From: a virus
Virus record (IMG/VR): IMGVR_UViG_3300038701_002693
Span: 1-33,223 of that record
DNA length: 33,223 bases
Reading direction: 5' to 3' (one strand)
Of this stretch, positions 2,853 to 27,166 are shown in pieces. The position numbers and the translations under genes were made by a program. A model generated the notes under the pieces. That model saw only the letters and a list, made by a program, of their open reading frames with translations. It ran no database searches and was not told where the DNA came from. The first letter of the stretch is position 1. Each line of letters begins with the position of its first letter.

Positions 2853-2890
2853 AAAAAATGGTGAGGAGATTCTGTTGCTAAGTTCTCCTC
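2853..2890 (-). terminator. Rho-independent terminator after the tmRNA tag region
   Basis: On the minus strand GAGGAGA (2890-2884) pairs perfectly with TCTCCTC (2869-2863) around a 14-base loop. ACCA and then six T residues follow at 2858-2853. The stem, loop and U-run fit an intrinsic terminator for the transcript that carries the tmRNA-like tag. The loop is longer than usual, which lowers confidence. Confidence 0.6.
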
Positions 2891-2898
2891 GAACTCCG

Positions 2899-2946
2899 TT
2901 AAGCCGCTAGGCTAACATGTTTGTAATTATCGTTTGCGTTTACCAT
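2899..2946 (-). ncRNA. ssrA: tmRNA-type tag-coding segment (ANDNYKHVSLAA)
   Basis: Reading from the GCA at 2937 gives A-N-D-N-Y-K-H-V-S-L-A-A followed by TAA (2901-2899). This is the layout of a tmRNA proteolysis tag: alanine resume codon, ANDN start, and hydrophobic LAA end recognised by ClpXP-type proteases. The bases before it (GTAAAC then GCAAACGAT) match the resume-codon context of alphaproteobacterial tmRNA as I remember it. The end of the tag forms a hairpin (GTTAGCC-TAGC-GGCTTAAC) holding the stop codon, like tmRNA helix P5. An in-frame ATG at 2946 would also allow a free 15-residue peptide, MVNANDNYKHVSLAA. The segment lies downstream of, not inside, the tRNA-like domain at 3122-3202. 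Confidence 0.75.
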
Positions 2947-3105
2947 TTATTTATTGAATTCAGAAAGTCTAAATTGATATGGTATGACTACATCATCATT
3001 ATCTGTGGCAGTATAATAACCATATTCATATTTGTCATCACAATGAGCTTTTACGTAATCAATTCCGTATGTTTCATAATAAAATTCACGTTGTTCTTTG
3101 TTCAT
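2947..3105 (-). CDS. Small acidic ORF inside the tmRNA-like locus
   Basis: A 52-residue ORF opening MNKEQREFYYETYGIDY and ending FRLSEFNK. It is rich in Tyr, Asp and Glu and I recognise no family. It fills the gap between the tRNA-like domain and the tag segment. Its TAA is directly followed by the in-frame ATG of the tag segment. AGGG lies about 13 bases before its ATG. It could be a real gene inserted into the tmRNA locus, or a spacer that happens to stay open; the clean start, amino-acid make-up and fit to the gap favour a gene. Confidence 0.5.
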   Translation of the reverse strand: MNKEQREFYYETYGIDYVKAHCDDKYEYGYYTATDNDDVVIPYQFRLSEFNK

Positions 3106-3121
3106 AATATGACCCTAAATT

Positions 3122-3202
3122 TGGTGGAAGTGCCCGGAACTGCCCCGGGGTCCTATTAGCTTTGACCGTAACCACAACTATAGTCGATCCTAAATCACTC
3201 CC
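3122..3202 (-). ncRNA. ssrA: Alanine-type tRNA-like domain of a tmRNA
   Basis: An 81-base minus-strand RNA from GGGAGTG (3202) to CCACCA (3122). The 7-bp acceptor stem GGGAGUG/CACUUCC includes a G3-U70 wobble and discriminator A73, the identity elements of alanyl-tRNA synthetase, and encodes its own CCA. The 5' part ATTTAGGATCGAC matches the conserved tmRNA D-loop region. The T-arm is CCCGG-GGCAGTT-CCGGG; the GGCAGUU loop is non-canonical for a tRNA but fits, from memory, alphaproteobacterial tmRNA. Between them CTATAGTT pairs with AGCTAATAG (one bulge), closing helix P2 over a loop of about 14 bases. In ordinary tmRNA the tag lies inside P2; here it does not. An AATAAATA element ends 6 bases before the first G. 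Confidence 0.8.
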
Positions 3203-3208
3203 TCGTCT

Positions 3209-3340
3209 TTATTTATTCTTTTCTGCATCACCCAATGAACGAATTCCACGATTTGTACGAAGTTCATATTCAGCTGCAGCAGCTGAAAGAGAGCCAGACT
3301 TTACGAACTGAACAAGCTCGCCATTTGATTTAGTCTTCAT
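3209..3340 (-). CDS. Hypothetical small protein, 43 residues
   Basis: An ORF opening MKTKSNGELVQFVKSGSLS and ending SLGDAEKNK. It has an alanine-rich helix (SAAAAEYELRTNRGIRSLGD) and looks like a real compact domain. It starts 8 bases after the upstream gene's stop and ends 6 bases before the tRNA-like RNA. I do not recognise the family. The coding reading is supported by composition and by the tight fit between neighbours. Confidence 0.55.
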   Translation of the reverse strand: MKTKSNGELVQFVKSGSLSAAAAEYELRTNRGIRSLGDAEKNK

Positions 3341-9453: not shown

Positions 9454-9594
9454 TTACATTCCTAAAGTTTCAATATGCCATGTTCTTGTTTTCCAACAGG
9501 CAGGGTCACTATATGTCCAATGTGAAATGTTTATTTCAATTGGACCATTAATACATGGTGTGGTAATGCAATATAACCATCTAGGAAATCTCAT
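9454..9594 (-). CDS. Hypothetical small protein, 46 residues
   Basis: Read from the ATG at 9594 it begins [19 protein letters not shown] and ends TWHIETLGM. It is rich in Trp and Cys. Its start overlaps the stop of RNA ligase (TAATG), and it ends 13 bases before the GapR start, filling the gap exactly. I do not recognise it; the tight coupling supports it as real. Confidence 0.6.
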
Positions 9595-10760
9595 TACCAC
9601 ACCAAACTATCTGAAAATTCATTTTTATTTATCTGCTTGAAAGTCTGCCATTTTCCATGACTTGAAGTATTTTTAATAGCCCATTCAACAACAATTTGAA
9701 AAATTTCAGGCTCAGTCATTTCTACCATATTGTCCCAAATCTTGAAAATGATCTGAGAAACAATTGGATTTTTAGTATCCTTCACAGTAAGAGCAAACTC
9801 CTTCTTACTGATTTTATCATCGATTGTCATAAACACTTCATTCGTAAGAGTGTTGATATAACAATGTAGAAGATGTTCATATTCAGCAAGCTTCTTCTTT
9901 GAAGCATCATCCAAAAGAGGAACAAGATCATCAACTTGATTTTCAAGGATGAGTTTTACAACATCCTTTTCATAGTCGAAATATGACTTCACCTTATGAA
10001 GTTGACAATACCAATCACCCTTCATCTTCACACGACTACCATCATTAAATGATACCACATAACCTTCTTCACCTTCAAGGTTTGAAGTGTGATCCTTCAA
10101 TGAGTCAAAGTCTGCAAATGAACCAACAGTCTGAACAACTGGAATTCCAAATTGTGATTCATATTTTGACATAAAATCATCAAAAATATGATATGAACCA
10201 GTAGCCATATCTCTCACAGCAGTAAGAATAAGTGACGGTTCATTATATTGTACTACAATCTTGTTTTTTGGCGACACCCATTCAAAAATGGGTGTTTGGC
10301 CAAAATTATAACACATTTTAGCAAATGAATCATATGGAATGGATGAATTTTCTACAAATTCTTTCACATCATTATGAAAGTCGATTGCTCCCATCTTAGT
10401 TGCCCAATAGATTTCTCCATTGGGACGAACAAATGGAGAAATCATGGATCCGTCCAGCTTCATCATGATAACATGCGGATTATCCAGTGAAAGTTCATAT
10501 GTTTCTAGCTTTTCACCATAGTTGAAAAACTTATGGAATGGACGACGTGCTACAGTTCCATCCTTATGGAGGATTAGACCGCGAAATTCGCGATACCAAG
10601 CGGCATCAGGTTCTGATAAATCTGGAAAAGTTCCTGGAAAATTCACAACATAATCTACAACGAAAAAATCATCCTTTTCTACAAGGATGAATTCATCCTT
10701 ACCTTCGATAAGTTCGCGAATTTTTGGTAGAAGATTACCTTCAAAGATTGGAAAGTTCAT
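9594..10760 (-). CDS. rnlA: RNA ligase 1 (T4 RnlA family)
   Basis: I chose the ATG at 10760 (388 residues, GGAG 9 bases upstream) over the in-frame ATG at 10775, which lacks a ribosome site. The nucleotidyltransferase motif I KLDGS has its adenylated lysine at about 101, close to K99 in T4. Other landmarks are REFRGLILHKDGTVARRPFHKFFNYGE, FEWVSPKNKIVVQY (motif IIIa), EGEEGYVVSFNDG (motif IV) and RVKMKGDWYCQLHK (motif V). T4 RnlA repairs tRNA cut by the host PrrC anticodon nuclease, so this is likely a counter-defence enzyme. No Pnk partner is visible in the window. Confidence 0.93.
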   Translation of the reverse strand: MNFPIFEGNLLPKIRELIEGKDEFILVEKDDFFVVDYVVNFPGTFPDLSEPDAAWYREFRGLILHKDGTVARRPFHKFFNYGEKLETYELSLDNPHVIMMKLDGSMISPFVRPNGEIYWATKMGAIDFHNDVKEFVENSSIPYDSFAKMCYNFGQTPIFEWVSPKNKIVVQYNEPSLILTAVRDMATGSYHIFDDFMSKYESQFGIPVVQTVGSFADFDSLKDHTSNLEGEEGYVVSFNDGSRVKMKGDWYCQLHKVKSYFDYEKDVVKLILENQVDDLVPLLDDASKKKLAEYEHLLHCYINTLTNEVFMTIDDKISKKEFALTVKDTKNPIVSQIIFKIWDNMVEMTEPEIFQIVVEWAIKNTSSHGKWQTFKQINKNEFSDSLVW

Positions 10761-10814
10761 TTCACATTTCTCCATTTAATATGTTATCTTATACTTATTT
10801 CATGAGTATGTACA

Positions 10815-17592: not shown

Positions 17593-17629
17593 AAGCAAAA
17601 TGATATTTTGGAGTTATGAATGTTATTTA
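17575..17629 (+). promoter_or_regulatory. Late promoter/hairpin switch for the HNH endonuclease
   Basis: TATAAATA at 17575-17582 overlaps the left arm TAAATAACAT (17577-17586), which is the perfect 10-bp complement of ATGTTATTTA (17620-17629) containing the start codon. A read-through transcript can fold over the start; a transcript begun at this promoter lacks most of the left arm. Confidence 0.65.
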
Positions 17630-18420
17630 AAGATAATAAATACACTAAATGGTATTTTACATTAATAGAAAATTGTAAAAACAAAAATTATAAAAGTTAT
17701 ACAGAAAAACATCATATAATTCCTAAGTCTCTAGGCGGGTCAGATAAATTATCCAACATAATAATTCTATCATTTAGAGAACATTATATAGCTCATTTAC
17801 TATTAATGAAAATGTGTGATGGGGAAAGCAAGAAAAAAATGGTTTGGGCTTTTCATAGAATGTCATTTTCTAATAATGATAAAATACCAAAAAATTCTCA
17901 TCAATATGAATTAGCTAGAAAATATTTTTCCACATTTATGAAAGATAAAAATAATCATCCATCTAAAACTTCAAGTGAATGGAGTAAGAATGCTTCAGAA
18001 TCTATTAAAAAAAATTGGAAGAATGATGATGAAAGACGCCTTAAAAACTCAATGACTATGAAAAAAACTCAAGAAAGATTAAAAAAAGAAAATCCAGATC
18101 TCTATTATAAAACACAAAAAGAAAATGCTAAAAAAGGAGCTCAAAGAATGAAAGAGCTCGCATTGTTTGATATAGAATTTTATGGTGAAATTTATAAAGG
18201 TTGGAATGATTTATTAGAAAAAACACAAATAACTCCAACATTGTATAAAAAATTTTATGAAAATGGCATTAATCCTACATTTAGAATAGGCAAAAATGGT
18301 CCTCTTTCCAAAAAAGAAATAATAGATATATCACAAGAATTAAATATGACATATGAAGAAACTTATGAATATTTAAAAAACAAAAAAATAATTAATAGAA
18401 AGGAGGTTTCCTATGACTAA
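17620..18420 (+). CDS. HNH homing endonuclease
   Basis: A 266-residue free-standing homing endonuclease inserted at the start of gene 47. The HNH motif is EKHHIIPKSLGGSD...NIIILSFREHYIAHLLLMKM (about 29-68), with the usual His-His, Asn and His positions. A basic middle with SEWSKNASESIKKNWKN resembles NUMOD-type DNA-binding segments. The C-terminus (SKKEIIDISQELNMTYEETYEYLKN) looks like a helix-turn-helix. GGAG precedes the ATG. Its last codons contain AAAGGAGG, the ribosome site of gene 47. Confidence 0.88.
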   Translation: MLFKDNKYTKWYFTLIENCKNKNYKSYTEKHHIIPKSLGGSDKLSNIIILSFREHYIAHLLLMKMCDGESKKKMVWAFHRMSFSNNDKIPKNSHQYELARKYFSTFMKDKNNHPSKTSSEWSKNASESIKKNWKNDDERRLKNSMTMKKTQERLKKENPDLYYKTQKENAKKGAQRMKELALFDIEFYGEIYKGWNDLLEKTQITPTLYKKFYENGINPTFRIGKNGPLSKKEIIDISQELNMTYEETYEYLKNKKIINRKEVSYD

Positions 18421-21666: not shown

Positions 21667-21715
21667 TACATTCTACCATAAATAAAAACAAAAGGATTAT
21701 TTATGGTAGAATGTA
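21667..21715 (+). promoter_or_regulatory. 19-bp inverted repeat with late promoter over the endonuclease start
   Basis: The left arm (21667-21685) begins TACATTCTACC and the right arm (21697-21715) ends GGTAGAATGTA; all 19 pairs are perfect around the 11-base loop AAACAAAAGGA. The left arm holds CATAAATA (21677-21684), the loop holds the ribosome site, and the right arm holds the start ATG (21703). Early read-through RNA would bury the ATG; a late transcript starting in the loop would expose it. Confidence 0.85.
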
Positions 21716-22377
21716 AAATCTGTAATACTAGATTAAAAAATACAAATGGTTTAGCCAAACATATTCATAACCAACATTCCAATATTTCTAAAGAAGAATA
21801 TTACAATTTATATATTAATGAATCAGATTCATTATGCCAATGTGGTAATACTAAAAAATTTAGAGATTTAGGAGTGGGATATCTTAAACATTGTTCGATG
21901 AAATGTAGATCAAAATTTTCTGAGCCAACAAAATATTGGGAAGGAAAAAAGCAACCCCAAGAAATGATAGATAAGAGAAGAAACACTCTTATCGAAAGAT
22001 ATGATGTTGCATGTGGTTTTTTATTAGGACATTCTTCTGTTGAGAAATATAAGGGGTTCATATGTAGATCTACATATGAAAAAATGTTTATTGATTTTGC
22101 TGAATATTATGAATATACAATATCAGTACCAAATAAAATATCGTATATTCATAAAAATAGAAAAAGATGGTATTTTCCTGATTTTTATATTAATGAATTA
22201 GATCTTATTATAGAAATAAAAAGTAAATGGACTTGGGATTTAAATTATGATATGAATAATGACAAAATAAAGTTTACAAAGATGTCGGGATATGATATTT
22301 TAATTATCAGCGAAGAAAATGGTCTAATGGATAAATCCAAATGGAGTGATTTAAATGAATATATTTCGAGTAGATGA
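21703..22377 (+). CDS. PD-(D/E)XK / Vsr-like homing endonuclease with zinc finger
   Basis: A 224-residue endonuclease. Residues 4-25 form a C2H2-type finger (CKICN...GLAKHIHNQH), followed by more cysteines (CQCG, CSMKC). The C-terminal catalytic part has RSTYEKMFIDFAEYY, RWYFPDFYINELDLIIEIKSKW, i.e. P-D then E-x-K as in PD-(D/E)XK nucleases and Vsr-like phage homing enzymes. It lies between def and the next conserved gene and overlaps that gene's start by 23 bases, supplying its GGAG site. Target not known; the insertion site suggests a nearby core gene. Confidence 0.8.
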   Translation: MVECKICNTRLKNTNGLAKHIHNQHSNISKEEYYNLYINESDSLCQCGNTKKFRDLGVGYLKHCSMKCRSKFSEPTKYWEGKKQPQEMIDKRRNTLIERYDVACGFLLGHSSVEKYKGFICRSTYEKMFIDFAEYYEYTISVPNKISYIHKNRKRWYFPDFYINELDLIIEIKSKWTWDLNYDMNNDKIKFTKMSGYDILIISEENGLMDKSKWSDLNEYISSR

Positions 22378-24772: not shown

Positions 24773-25567
24773 ATGAAGCCTACTCGTCTTTATATAAAAC
24801 AATGTTCTCATTGTAATAAAAAATATTTTGGAAAAACTGTATTAAAAGATATAGAAAAATATGAAGGTTCAGGTAAATTATGGAAACTTCACCTTAAAAA
24901 ACACAATGCCTTAGCAGTTCATATTTGGAATTCTGAATGGTATTATGACAAAGAAATAATGGTTAAAGATGCCTTATTATTCAGTCAATCAAATATGATT
25001 GTAGAAAGCGAGAAATGGTTTAATCTTAAAGAAGAAAATGGAATAGATGGTGGTGATAATTCTGAATTTATAGATTATCTAATTATAGGCGAAAAATTTA
25101 AAGGCGATAATAATCCGGCTAAAAAACCAGGGGTTGGAGAAAAAATATCTAAATCATTACGCGGAAAAAAACAAAGTCCAGAACATGTTAAAAAAAATTC
25201 AGAATTTAGAAAAGGTAAAACGAAAGAAAATTATGAGCCTATTGCCAAAATGTCAAAAACTATTTCAAAAAAATACTCAGGATTGACAAAAGAAAATAGT
25301 GAAATGCGAAGAAATCATTCGAAATCATTATCTGCTAGTATGACAGGTAAAACAAAAGAAACATGTCCTAGATTAGCAAAAGCTTCAAAAACTTTAAGCG
25401 AATCTCTGAGTTTATTGAAATTACATCACCGAAGAGAAATAGTAAGATTAATAGACATCGAGGGATATAACTTCAAGGATATAATAGATTATTTTGATGA
25501 TGTTAGACCATCTATAAATCAGGTGAAAAAAGCATATAAAAAATATAAAGATAATGGAGAAATTTAA
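24773..25567 (+). CDS. GIY-YIG-type homing endonuclease with NUMOD3 repeats
   Basis: A 264-residue protein. The N-terminal RLYIKQCSHCNKKYFGKT and YEGSGKLWKLHLKKHN match the Seg-type GIY-YIG domain, although the usual YIG is YFG here. Three NUMOD3-like DNA-binding segments follow (NPAKKPGVGEKISKSLRGKK, NYEPIAKMSKTISKKYSG, CPRLAKASKTLSESL). The C-terminus (EIVRLIDIEGYNFKDIIDYF) resembles a helix-turn-helix. The catalytic strand departs from consensus, so nuclease activity is uncertain. GGAG in its last codons serves the next gene. Confidence 0.8.
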   Translation: MKPTRLYIKQCSHCNKKYFGKTVLKDIEKYEGSGKLWKLHLKKHNALAVHIWNSEWYYDKEIMVKDALLFSQSNMIVESEKWFNLKEENGIDGGDNSEFIDYLIIGEKFKGDNNPAKKPGVGEKISKSLRGKKQSPEHVKKNSEFRKGKTKENYEPIAKMSKTISKKYSGLTKENSEMRRNHSKSLSASMTGKTKETCPRLAKASKTLSESLSLLKLHHRREIVRLIDIEGYNFKDIIDYFDDVRPSINQVKKAYKKYKDNGEI

Positions 25568-26581: not shown

Positions 26582-26620
26582 ATACACATAAATAACAATA
26601 AAAAAGGAATTTATGTGTAT
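26582..26620 (+). promoter_or_regulatory. 12-bp inverted repeat with late promoter over the endonuclease start
   Basis: ATACACATAAAT (26582-26593) and ATTTATGTGTAT (26609-26620) are perfect complements around a 15-base loop with AAAAAGGA. CATAAATA lies at 26587-26594, overlapping the left arm, and the GTG start (26615) is in the right arm. Same design as at 21667-21715. Confidence 0.8.
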
Positions 26621-27166
26621 TTTACTGTTTATAAAACAACCTGTCTAATTAATAACAAAATTTATATAGGTGTTCATAAAACAAAAAAACCATATGATTC
26701 TTATTTAGGATCGGGTAAATTAATTCTTTATGCTATAAAAAAATATGGTAAAGAAAACTTCACAAAAGAAATTCTCTTTATATTCGATAATAAATTGGAT
26801 ATGTTTAAAAAAGAAATTGAATTGGTTACTGAAGATTTCTGTTTAAGAGAAGATACTTATAATATGTTTCCAGGTGGAAGCGGCGGCTGTAAATTAAATC
26901 CAGAAAAGAGAAAAGAAATGGGTTTAAAAAATATAAAAATTATTCATAAAAAGAATGAACAAACAAATCATTATAAAAGACTCGGACAATTAAACGCAAA
27001 GAGAATAAAAGGTACAAAAAATAAAATGCATTCGGAGAGAATGAAAAAAATACATAAAGAAACACCTATGTTATGGTGGAACAATGGAAGTGAAAACAAA
27101 AGATCTCATGTATCTCCTGGAGATACATGGGTGCGTGGAAGATTGGCGAAAAGGATAGATTTATGA
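26615..27166 (+). CDS. GIY-YIG homing endonuclease (Seg-like)
   Basis: A 183-residue protein starting at GTG with AAAAAGGA upstream. The GIY-YIG domain has FTVYKTTCLINNKIYIGVHKTK, then YDSYLGSGKLILYAIKKYGKENFTKEILF with catalytic Glu further on (KKEIELV). The C-terminal MLWWNNGSENKRSHVSPGDTW is the WWNNG-type motif found in phage homing enzymes. It ends in an ATGA overlap with the epimerase gene, whose ribosome site AAAGGAT it contains. Confidence 0.87.
   Translation: MYFTVYKTTCLINNKIYIGVHKTKKPYDSYLGSGKLILYAIKKYGKENFTKEILFIFDNKLDMFKKEIELVTEDFCLREDTYNMFPGGSGGCKLNPEKRKEMGLKNIKIIHKKNEQTNHYKRLGQLNAKRIKGTKNKMHSERMKKIHKETPMLWWNNGSENKRSHVSPGDTWVRGRLAKRIDL

What the first reader, a model, noticed from the sequence alone, without database searches (positions are those of the whole stretch)
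2899..3202. Rearranged phage tmRNA: complete alanine-type tRNA-like domain with the tag moved downstream of CCA
Seen: an 81-base tRNA-like domain (3202-3122) with a G3-U70 acceptor, A73, encoded CCA, tmRNA D-loop and GGCAGUU T-loop, and a closed P2 helix; then a 52-codon ORF; then a tag ANDNYKHVSLAA in resume-codon context with a P5-like hairpin and a terminator. Known: in one-piece tmRNA the tag lies between the P2 strands; in two-piece permuted tmRNA the acceptor piece precedes a coding piece that begins with the 5' acceptor strand. This order fits neither. It may be a third architecture, with the tag acting as a separate RNA, or a decoy: a chargeable tRNA-like domain without a tag.
Basis: partly seen in the sequence, partly recalled or inferred. 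Interest (0 to 1): 0.9.

Follow-up and report, generated by a model that had tools for sequence, protein, structure and literature searches.

The report
Phage tmRNA split into two genes
Some phages appear to encode the ribosome-rescue RNA (tmRNA) as two separate small RNAs, a complete chargeable tRNA-like piece and a downstream tag-coding piece with no visible pairing between them, which would challenge the view that the tag message must be physically tied to the tRNA-like part.

Summary
On the minus strand, 3202-3122 is a complete closed tmRNA tRNA-like domain (TLD). The tag ANDNYKHVSLAA (2937-2899) and an alphaproteobacterial coding-piece 3' hairpin lie beyond a 52-codon ORF. It is not a one-off. 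A related phage (L001) has the same order without the ORF. T4-like contigs L057/L058 and L060/L064 place the tag 21 nt after CCA. Two other contigs separate the halves further: L181 by 637 nt and a gene, L063 by 4.4 kb and 19 tRNA genes. The TLD is always upstream, on the same strand. Fourteen phage TLDs share an invariant G3-U70 pair and strong covariation. All six distinct tags keep the resume-codon context (A at -4), and two offsetting indels keep the frame between the window and L001. Nothing upstream of the tag could pair with the TLD. The best reading is a re-permuted alpha-type tmRNA split into a self-contained TLD RNA and a short tag RNA acting in trans. The serious rival is a decoy TLD: a tag-less TLD from phage DS6A is reported to inhibit host tmRNA. 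The split gene form with a conserved separate tag is not among the published tmRNA forms I found; trans activity is inferred, not shown.

The parts
3122..3202 (-). closed tmRNA tRNA-like domain (81 nt): acceptor stem with G3-U70, tmRNA D-loop, short closed P2, T-arm, encoded CCA
   Evidence: (RF00023 1e-8)
3210..3217 (-). AATAAATA, possible T4-type late promoter just upstream of the TLD
   Evidence: sequence; gp55-like late sigma factor encoded in the window; inference
2947..3105 (-). 52-codon ORF between the two halves, absent from relative L001; no Pfam or PHROG match
2948..2955 (-). AATAAATA (TATAAATA in L001) ending 10 nt before the resume codon; candidate late promoter of the tag RNA
   Evidence: 1.5% of positions score as well in the window, 0.14% in L001
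2899..2937 (-). tag reading frame ANDNYKHVSLAA-stop, resume codon GCA preceded by GUAAAC (A at -4)
2863..2890 (-). 3' hairpin of alpha-type tmRNA coding piece (loop ACTTAGCAACAGAA)
2853..2858 (-). T-run after the hairpin, possible terminator
   Evidence: sequence; not tested

Best explanation
This is a split, re-permuted alpha-type tmRNA. In an ordinary alpha permuted gene the order is acceptor piece, intervening sequence, 5' acceptor strand, tag. Here the 5' acceptor strand, D-loop and 5' P2 strand sit in front of the acceptor piece, giving a self-contained TLD (shown by sequence). The former coding piece is reduced to about 6 nt upstream of the resume codon, the tag and the 3' hairpin (shown). 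The two RNAs probably become separate molecules through tRNA-type processing of the TLD, and perhaps a promoter just upstream of the tag (inferred). The TLD would be charged with alanine, bind host SmpB and EF-Tu and enter stalled ribosomes. The tag RNA would then be loaded in trans as the template, using the conserved upstream A and the hairpin as handles (inferred).
For: Same order in L001, L057/L058/L060/L064, L181 and L063. The spacing runs from 21 to 4448 nt and includes an ORF with an apparent ribosome-binding site (L181) or 19 tRNAs (L063). TLD covariation: 96.8% of cells paired, 12 of 16 pairs with changes on both sides, with 0/500 shuffles reaching the observed pairing or covariation score; G3-U70 in 14/14. 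Whole-contig RF01849 search puts its best hit on the stand-alone tag RNAs of L063 and L181 (E about 1e-4), and model R1 finds exactly one TLD in each of the eight contigs. In about 0.7 Mb a loose tag filter found only those two tags, both downstream of a TLD on the same strand. All six distinct tags keep A at -4, the main frame determinant in E. coli (PMC2481249), and no in-frame start codon is conserved. Between window and L001 a -1 and a +1 indel cancel inside the tag, so the frame and SLAA-stop survive.
Against: No complementarity between cognate TLD and tag RNAs was found, so nothing visible brings them together. More than half of the distinct closed phage TLDs found have no recognisable tag in the sequence held. 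A tag-less phage TLD is reported to act as an inhibitor. The promoter evidence is weak outside L001 and the window. No expression data exist.
Confidence: 0.55

Rival explanations
1. Decoy: the TLD is a chargeable RNA that occupies SmpB and stalled ribosomes and blocks host trans-translation; the tag piece is a leftover or has another role.
For: The tag-less, roughly 65-nt tmRNA of mycobacteriophage DS6A is reported to inhibit endogenous tmRNA in E. coli (PMC11915505 citing Mao et al. 2009). Many phage contigs carry a closed TLD with no ANDN-type tag found.
Against: Tag, resume context and hairpin stay intact in six distinct loci, with frame-preserving paired indels between window and L001 and mostly synonymous changes between L057 and L060/L064. 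A leftover should decay.
Confidence: 0.25
2. The two RNAs work as one complex held by a protein or by tertiary or pseudoknot contacts not visible in simple folding, so it is a two-piece tmRNA with an unusual interface rather than free trans action.
For: Order and strand are always conserved; the 3' hairpin loop is almost invariant; L001 keeps a 15-bp intervening-sequence helix that brings the tag next to the TLD in the precursor.
Against: That helix is absent from the window and the L057 group, and would be lost when the CCA end is trimmed. Cofolding shows no cognate pairing.
Confidence: 0.12
3. A decaying permuted tmRNA in which both halves are non-functional relics.
For: Weak Rfam scores; spacer invaded by an ORF in the window.
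Against: The acceptor stem pairs 7/7 with covariation across 14 TLDs, the tag frame is preserved, and the same arrangement occurs in at least three phage lineages.
Confidence: 0.05
4. Assembly artefact or chance arrangement.
For: All split cases are metagenome contigs.
Against: The same arrangement was assembled independently several times (L057 and L058; L060 and L064; L001 and window), with different spacers.
Confidence: 0.02

Closest known systems
Alphaproteobacterial permuted two-piece tmRNA (RF01849, RF04321), including phage copies such as Rhizobium phage RHph_I1_18 and Melnitz
   Same: T-loop type, resume context, ANDN..LAA tag, 3' hairpin with GGCAACAGAA loop, acceptor region upstream of the tag on one strand
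   Different: 5' acceptor strand, D-loop and P2 strand lie before the acceptor piece; the coding piece has no strand that could pair with it
CDS-less (tag-less) tmRNA: mycobacteriophage DS6A, some plastids, and the re-permuted mitochondrial tmRNA of Jakoba libera
   Same: compact closed TLD without a tag in P2
   Different: here a conserved tag RNA is encoded downstream
Standard one-piece tmRNA (RF00023)
   Same: TLD strands in the ordinary order
   Different: the tag is outside P2 and after CCA
Intron-form tmRNA
   Same: a gene form interrupted by other sequence
   Different: no group I intron in the T-loop; the tag is outside the TLD

Membership tests
tmRNA tRNA-like domain | 7-bp acceptor stem with G3-U70, A73, CCA | tested here: met
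   window and 13 other TLDs
tmRNA tRNA-like domain | conserved D-loop (GGNUCGAC) and T-arm, no anticodon arm | tested here: met
tmRNA tRNA-like domain | alanine charging and SmpB binding | not testable with these tools
   needs biochemistry
standard tmRNA | tag enclosed between the P2 strands | tested here: not met
   P2 closes over a 14-nt loop; the tag starts 184 nt after CCA
permuted two-piece tmRNA | acceptor piece upstream of tag piece, alpha-type tag and 3' hairpin | tested here: met
permuted two-piece tmRNA | coding piece begins with the 5' acceptor strand and 5' P2 strand | tested here: not met
   no such strand between CCA and tag in the window, L001, L057 or L181, nor upstream of the tag in L063
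CDS-less tmRNA (DS6A type) | no tag reading frame belongs to the RNA | tested here: inconclusive
   none in the TLD itself, but a conserved tag RNA lies downstream; DS6A itself is not in the held collection
intron-form tmRNA | group I intron in the T-loop | tested here: not met
   T-loop is continuous; no intron family hit
trans-translation template | A at -4 of the resume codon, tag ending in LAA-type residues and a stop | tested here: met
   A at -4 in all six distinct split tags; ends are LAA, or TAA (Thr-Ala-Ala) in L060

The most novel reading that the evidence does not exclude
A fourth tmRNA gene form: the tRNA-like domain and the tag message are separate RNAs, the message starting only a few bases before the resume codon, and the ribosome accepts the message in trans after the TLD-SmpB complex enters.
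Probability: 0.5. Interest if true: 0.92.

Novelty: new variant of a known kind. Interest (0 to 1): 0.8.

Why it matters
Known tmRNAs keep the tag covalently attached to, or base-paired with, the tRNA-like domain. If a free tag RNA can serve, the requirement for tethering in trans-translation becomes directly testable with two minimal natural RNAs (about 62-81 nt and about 85 nt). It also exposes a class of phage TLD genes that ARAGORN and Rfam at default thresholds did not call in the loci tested, relevant to how phages use or block ribosome rescue.

Tried and rejected
TLD-tag base pairing: duplexfold and cofold matrices show no cognate preference. Sigma70-like promoters upstream of the L057, L060, L063 and L181 tags: present, but 4-26% of comparable positions score as well, so not significant alone. 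Relatives of the 52-aa ORF: none. L046, L056, L177, L178, L186 and all five genome-contig hits: chance matches; the genome hits pair only 4-5 of 7 acceptor bases. L236 and L240: ordinary permuted genes. Isolated alpha phages examined all have an ordinary permuted gene (RHph_I1_18), and so do nearly all contigs matched by the tag pattern, apart from a few clearly protein-coding matches. Resolving the tag-less TLD groups: no ANDN-type tag in the contig sequence held. Close relatives of L063 and L181 among isolated phages: none useful.

Full report
Check of the observation. The window is a 33 kb fragment of a T4-like phage; PHROG matches include single-strand DNA binding protein (gp32), sliding clamp, clamp loader, SbcC-like gp46 and the late sigma factor gp55. 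On the minus strand, 3202-3122 is a complete tRNA-like domain of tmRNA: a 7-bp acceptor stem with G3-U70, the tmRNA D-loop, a short P2 closed over a 14-nt loop, a T-arm with an alpha-type loop and an encoded CCA. After a 52-codon ORF (3105-2947) comes the tag ANDNYKHVSLAA (2937-2899) and a hairpin with the alphaproteobacterial loop ACTTAGCAACAGAA. Rfam at its curated cut-offs and ARAGORN miss it, but in a search of 501 bases RF00023 hits the TLD (E 1e-8) and RF01849 hits tag plus hairpin (E 1.4e-8).

Relatives. A phage contig whose nearby metallophosphoesterase-like protein is 76% identical (L001) has the same gene neighbours and the same order, TLD-CCA-119 nt-tag-hairpin, without the 52-aa ORF. 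The tags are ANDNYKHVSLAA and ANDNTNMLSLAA: one base is missing in one place and one added in another, so the frame and the SLAA-stop end are kept. The L001 spacer folds into a 15-bp helix (z -4.3), like the helices flanking the intervening sequence of ordinary permuted phage tmRNAs. An alpha-type permuted gene with the same 3' hairpin is present in Rhizobium phage RHph_I1_18. Other isolated alpha phages examined, and nearly all contigs matched by a tag pattern, have the ordinary permuted order.

A wider class. Scans of IMG/VR for a closed TLD, with a pattern that did not require acceptor, T-stem or P2 pairing, found many contigs with perfect 7/7 acceptor stems. The same kind of pattern in 257 billion bases of bacterial and archaeal genomes gave five hits, all chance. 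A covariance model from five of them scores all 14 distinct TLDs at 47-88 bits, while ordinary permuted genes reach at most about 36 bits. Across 14 TLDs 96.8% of cells pair and 12 of 16 pairs change on both sides; no shuffle reaches the pairing or the covariation score, and sliding the partner by 1-3 columns drops pairing to 44-52%. The alignment was fitted to the structure, which favours it somewhat, but the slide control is decisive.

Split cases. T4-like contigs L057/L058 and L060/L064 have the tag only 21 nt after CCA. L181 has TLD, then a 75-aa ORF with an apparent ribosome-binding site, then the tag ANDNYFPLALAA, 637 nt away. L063 has TLD, 19 tRNA genes, then the tag ANDNSNMDYALAA 4448 nt away, followed by the alpha hairpin and a terminator-like stem. 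Searching those whole contigs, RF01849 puts its best hit on the stand-alone tag RNA (E 1e-4 and 1.8e-4), and the TLD model finds exactly one TLD each. In all cases the TLD is upstream of the tag on the same strand, which fits descent from a permuted gene. L061/L062 carry a second copy of the 5' half in front of an acceptor piece as well as one after CCA, a plausible duplication intermediate.

What the tag RNA keeps. All six distinct tags keep A at -4 and U or C at -5 of the resume codon; in E. coli the five bases upstream set the frame and A86 (-4) is the key one (PMC2481249). No 5' acceptor strand, P2 strand or recognisable pseudoknot 1 is present further upstream. There is no conserved start codon in frame: L001, L063 and L181 have in-frame stops just upstream, the window has an ATG at -9, and L057/L060 a TTG at -18. 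So the frame looks like a resume frame, not a small gene. TATAAATA (L001) and AATAAATA (window) end exactly 10 nt before the resume codon (0.14% and 1.5% of positions score as well); sigma70-like elements before the other tags are not significant on their own. A tag RNA starting a few bases before the resume codon is therefore a suggestion only.

Mechanism. Shown: the anatomy, its conservation, and the lack of a pairing partner in the tag RNA. Inferred: separate RNAs, alanine charging, SmpB-dependent entry, and use of the tag RNA in trans. The weak point is that no contact between the two RNAs is visible.

The decoy rival is serious. The tmRNA database paper reports that a roughly 65-nt tag-less tmRNA of phage DS6A inhibits endogenous tmRNA in E. 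coli, and also lists CDS-less plastid forms and the re-permuted tmRNA of Jakoba libera mitochondria (PMC11915505). DS6A is not in the collection held here, so I could not ask whether it has a separate tag. Many closed phage TLDs found here have no ANDN-type tag in the sequence held; these look like further members of the DS6A kind. The conserved tags of the split group are what the decoy model does not explain.

Novelty. The published gene forms are standard, intron, permuted and CDS-less (PMC11915505). A closed TLD with a separate conserved tag RNA is none of these. I found no report of it in the papers searched, though most subscription journals are not held. I rate it a new variant of a known kind.

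Noticed in passing
L179, L182-L185, L187, L190, L192, L180/L188, L189, L191, L059, L235, L238, L243, L247, L249: closed 66-85-nt tmRNA TLDs with 7/7 acceptor stems and no ANDN-type tag found in the sequence held; probably relatives of the DS6A kind
   Followed up: partly
L061:4073-4700 (-), L062: tmRNA locus with two acceptor pieces and two copies of the 5' half, one pair forming a closed TLD; possible duplication intermediate
   Followed up: partly
L179, L183, L184 just downstream of the TLD: a conserved, apparently structured sequence of about 85 nt (GGAGGTGGGG...CCCCGCCTCC) with varying, still complementary ends; no Rfam match in L183 or L190
   Followed up: partly
window 9594-10775 (-): T4 RNA ligase 1 relative (Pfam RNA_lig_T4_1); whether it could act on these RNAs is unknown
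   Followed up: no
window 17620-18420, 21703-22377, 24773-25567, 26615-27166 (+): several ORFs that look like HNH or GIY-YIG homing endonucleases scattered among replication genes; judged by eye only
   Followed up: no
L063:2487-6997 (-): array of 19 tRNA genes lying exactly between the TLD and the stand-alone tag RNA
   Followed up: partly
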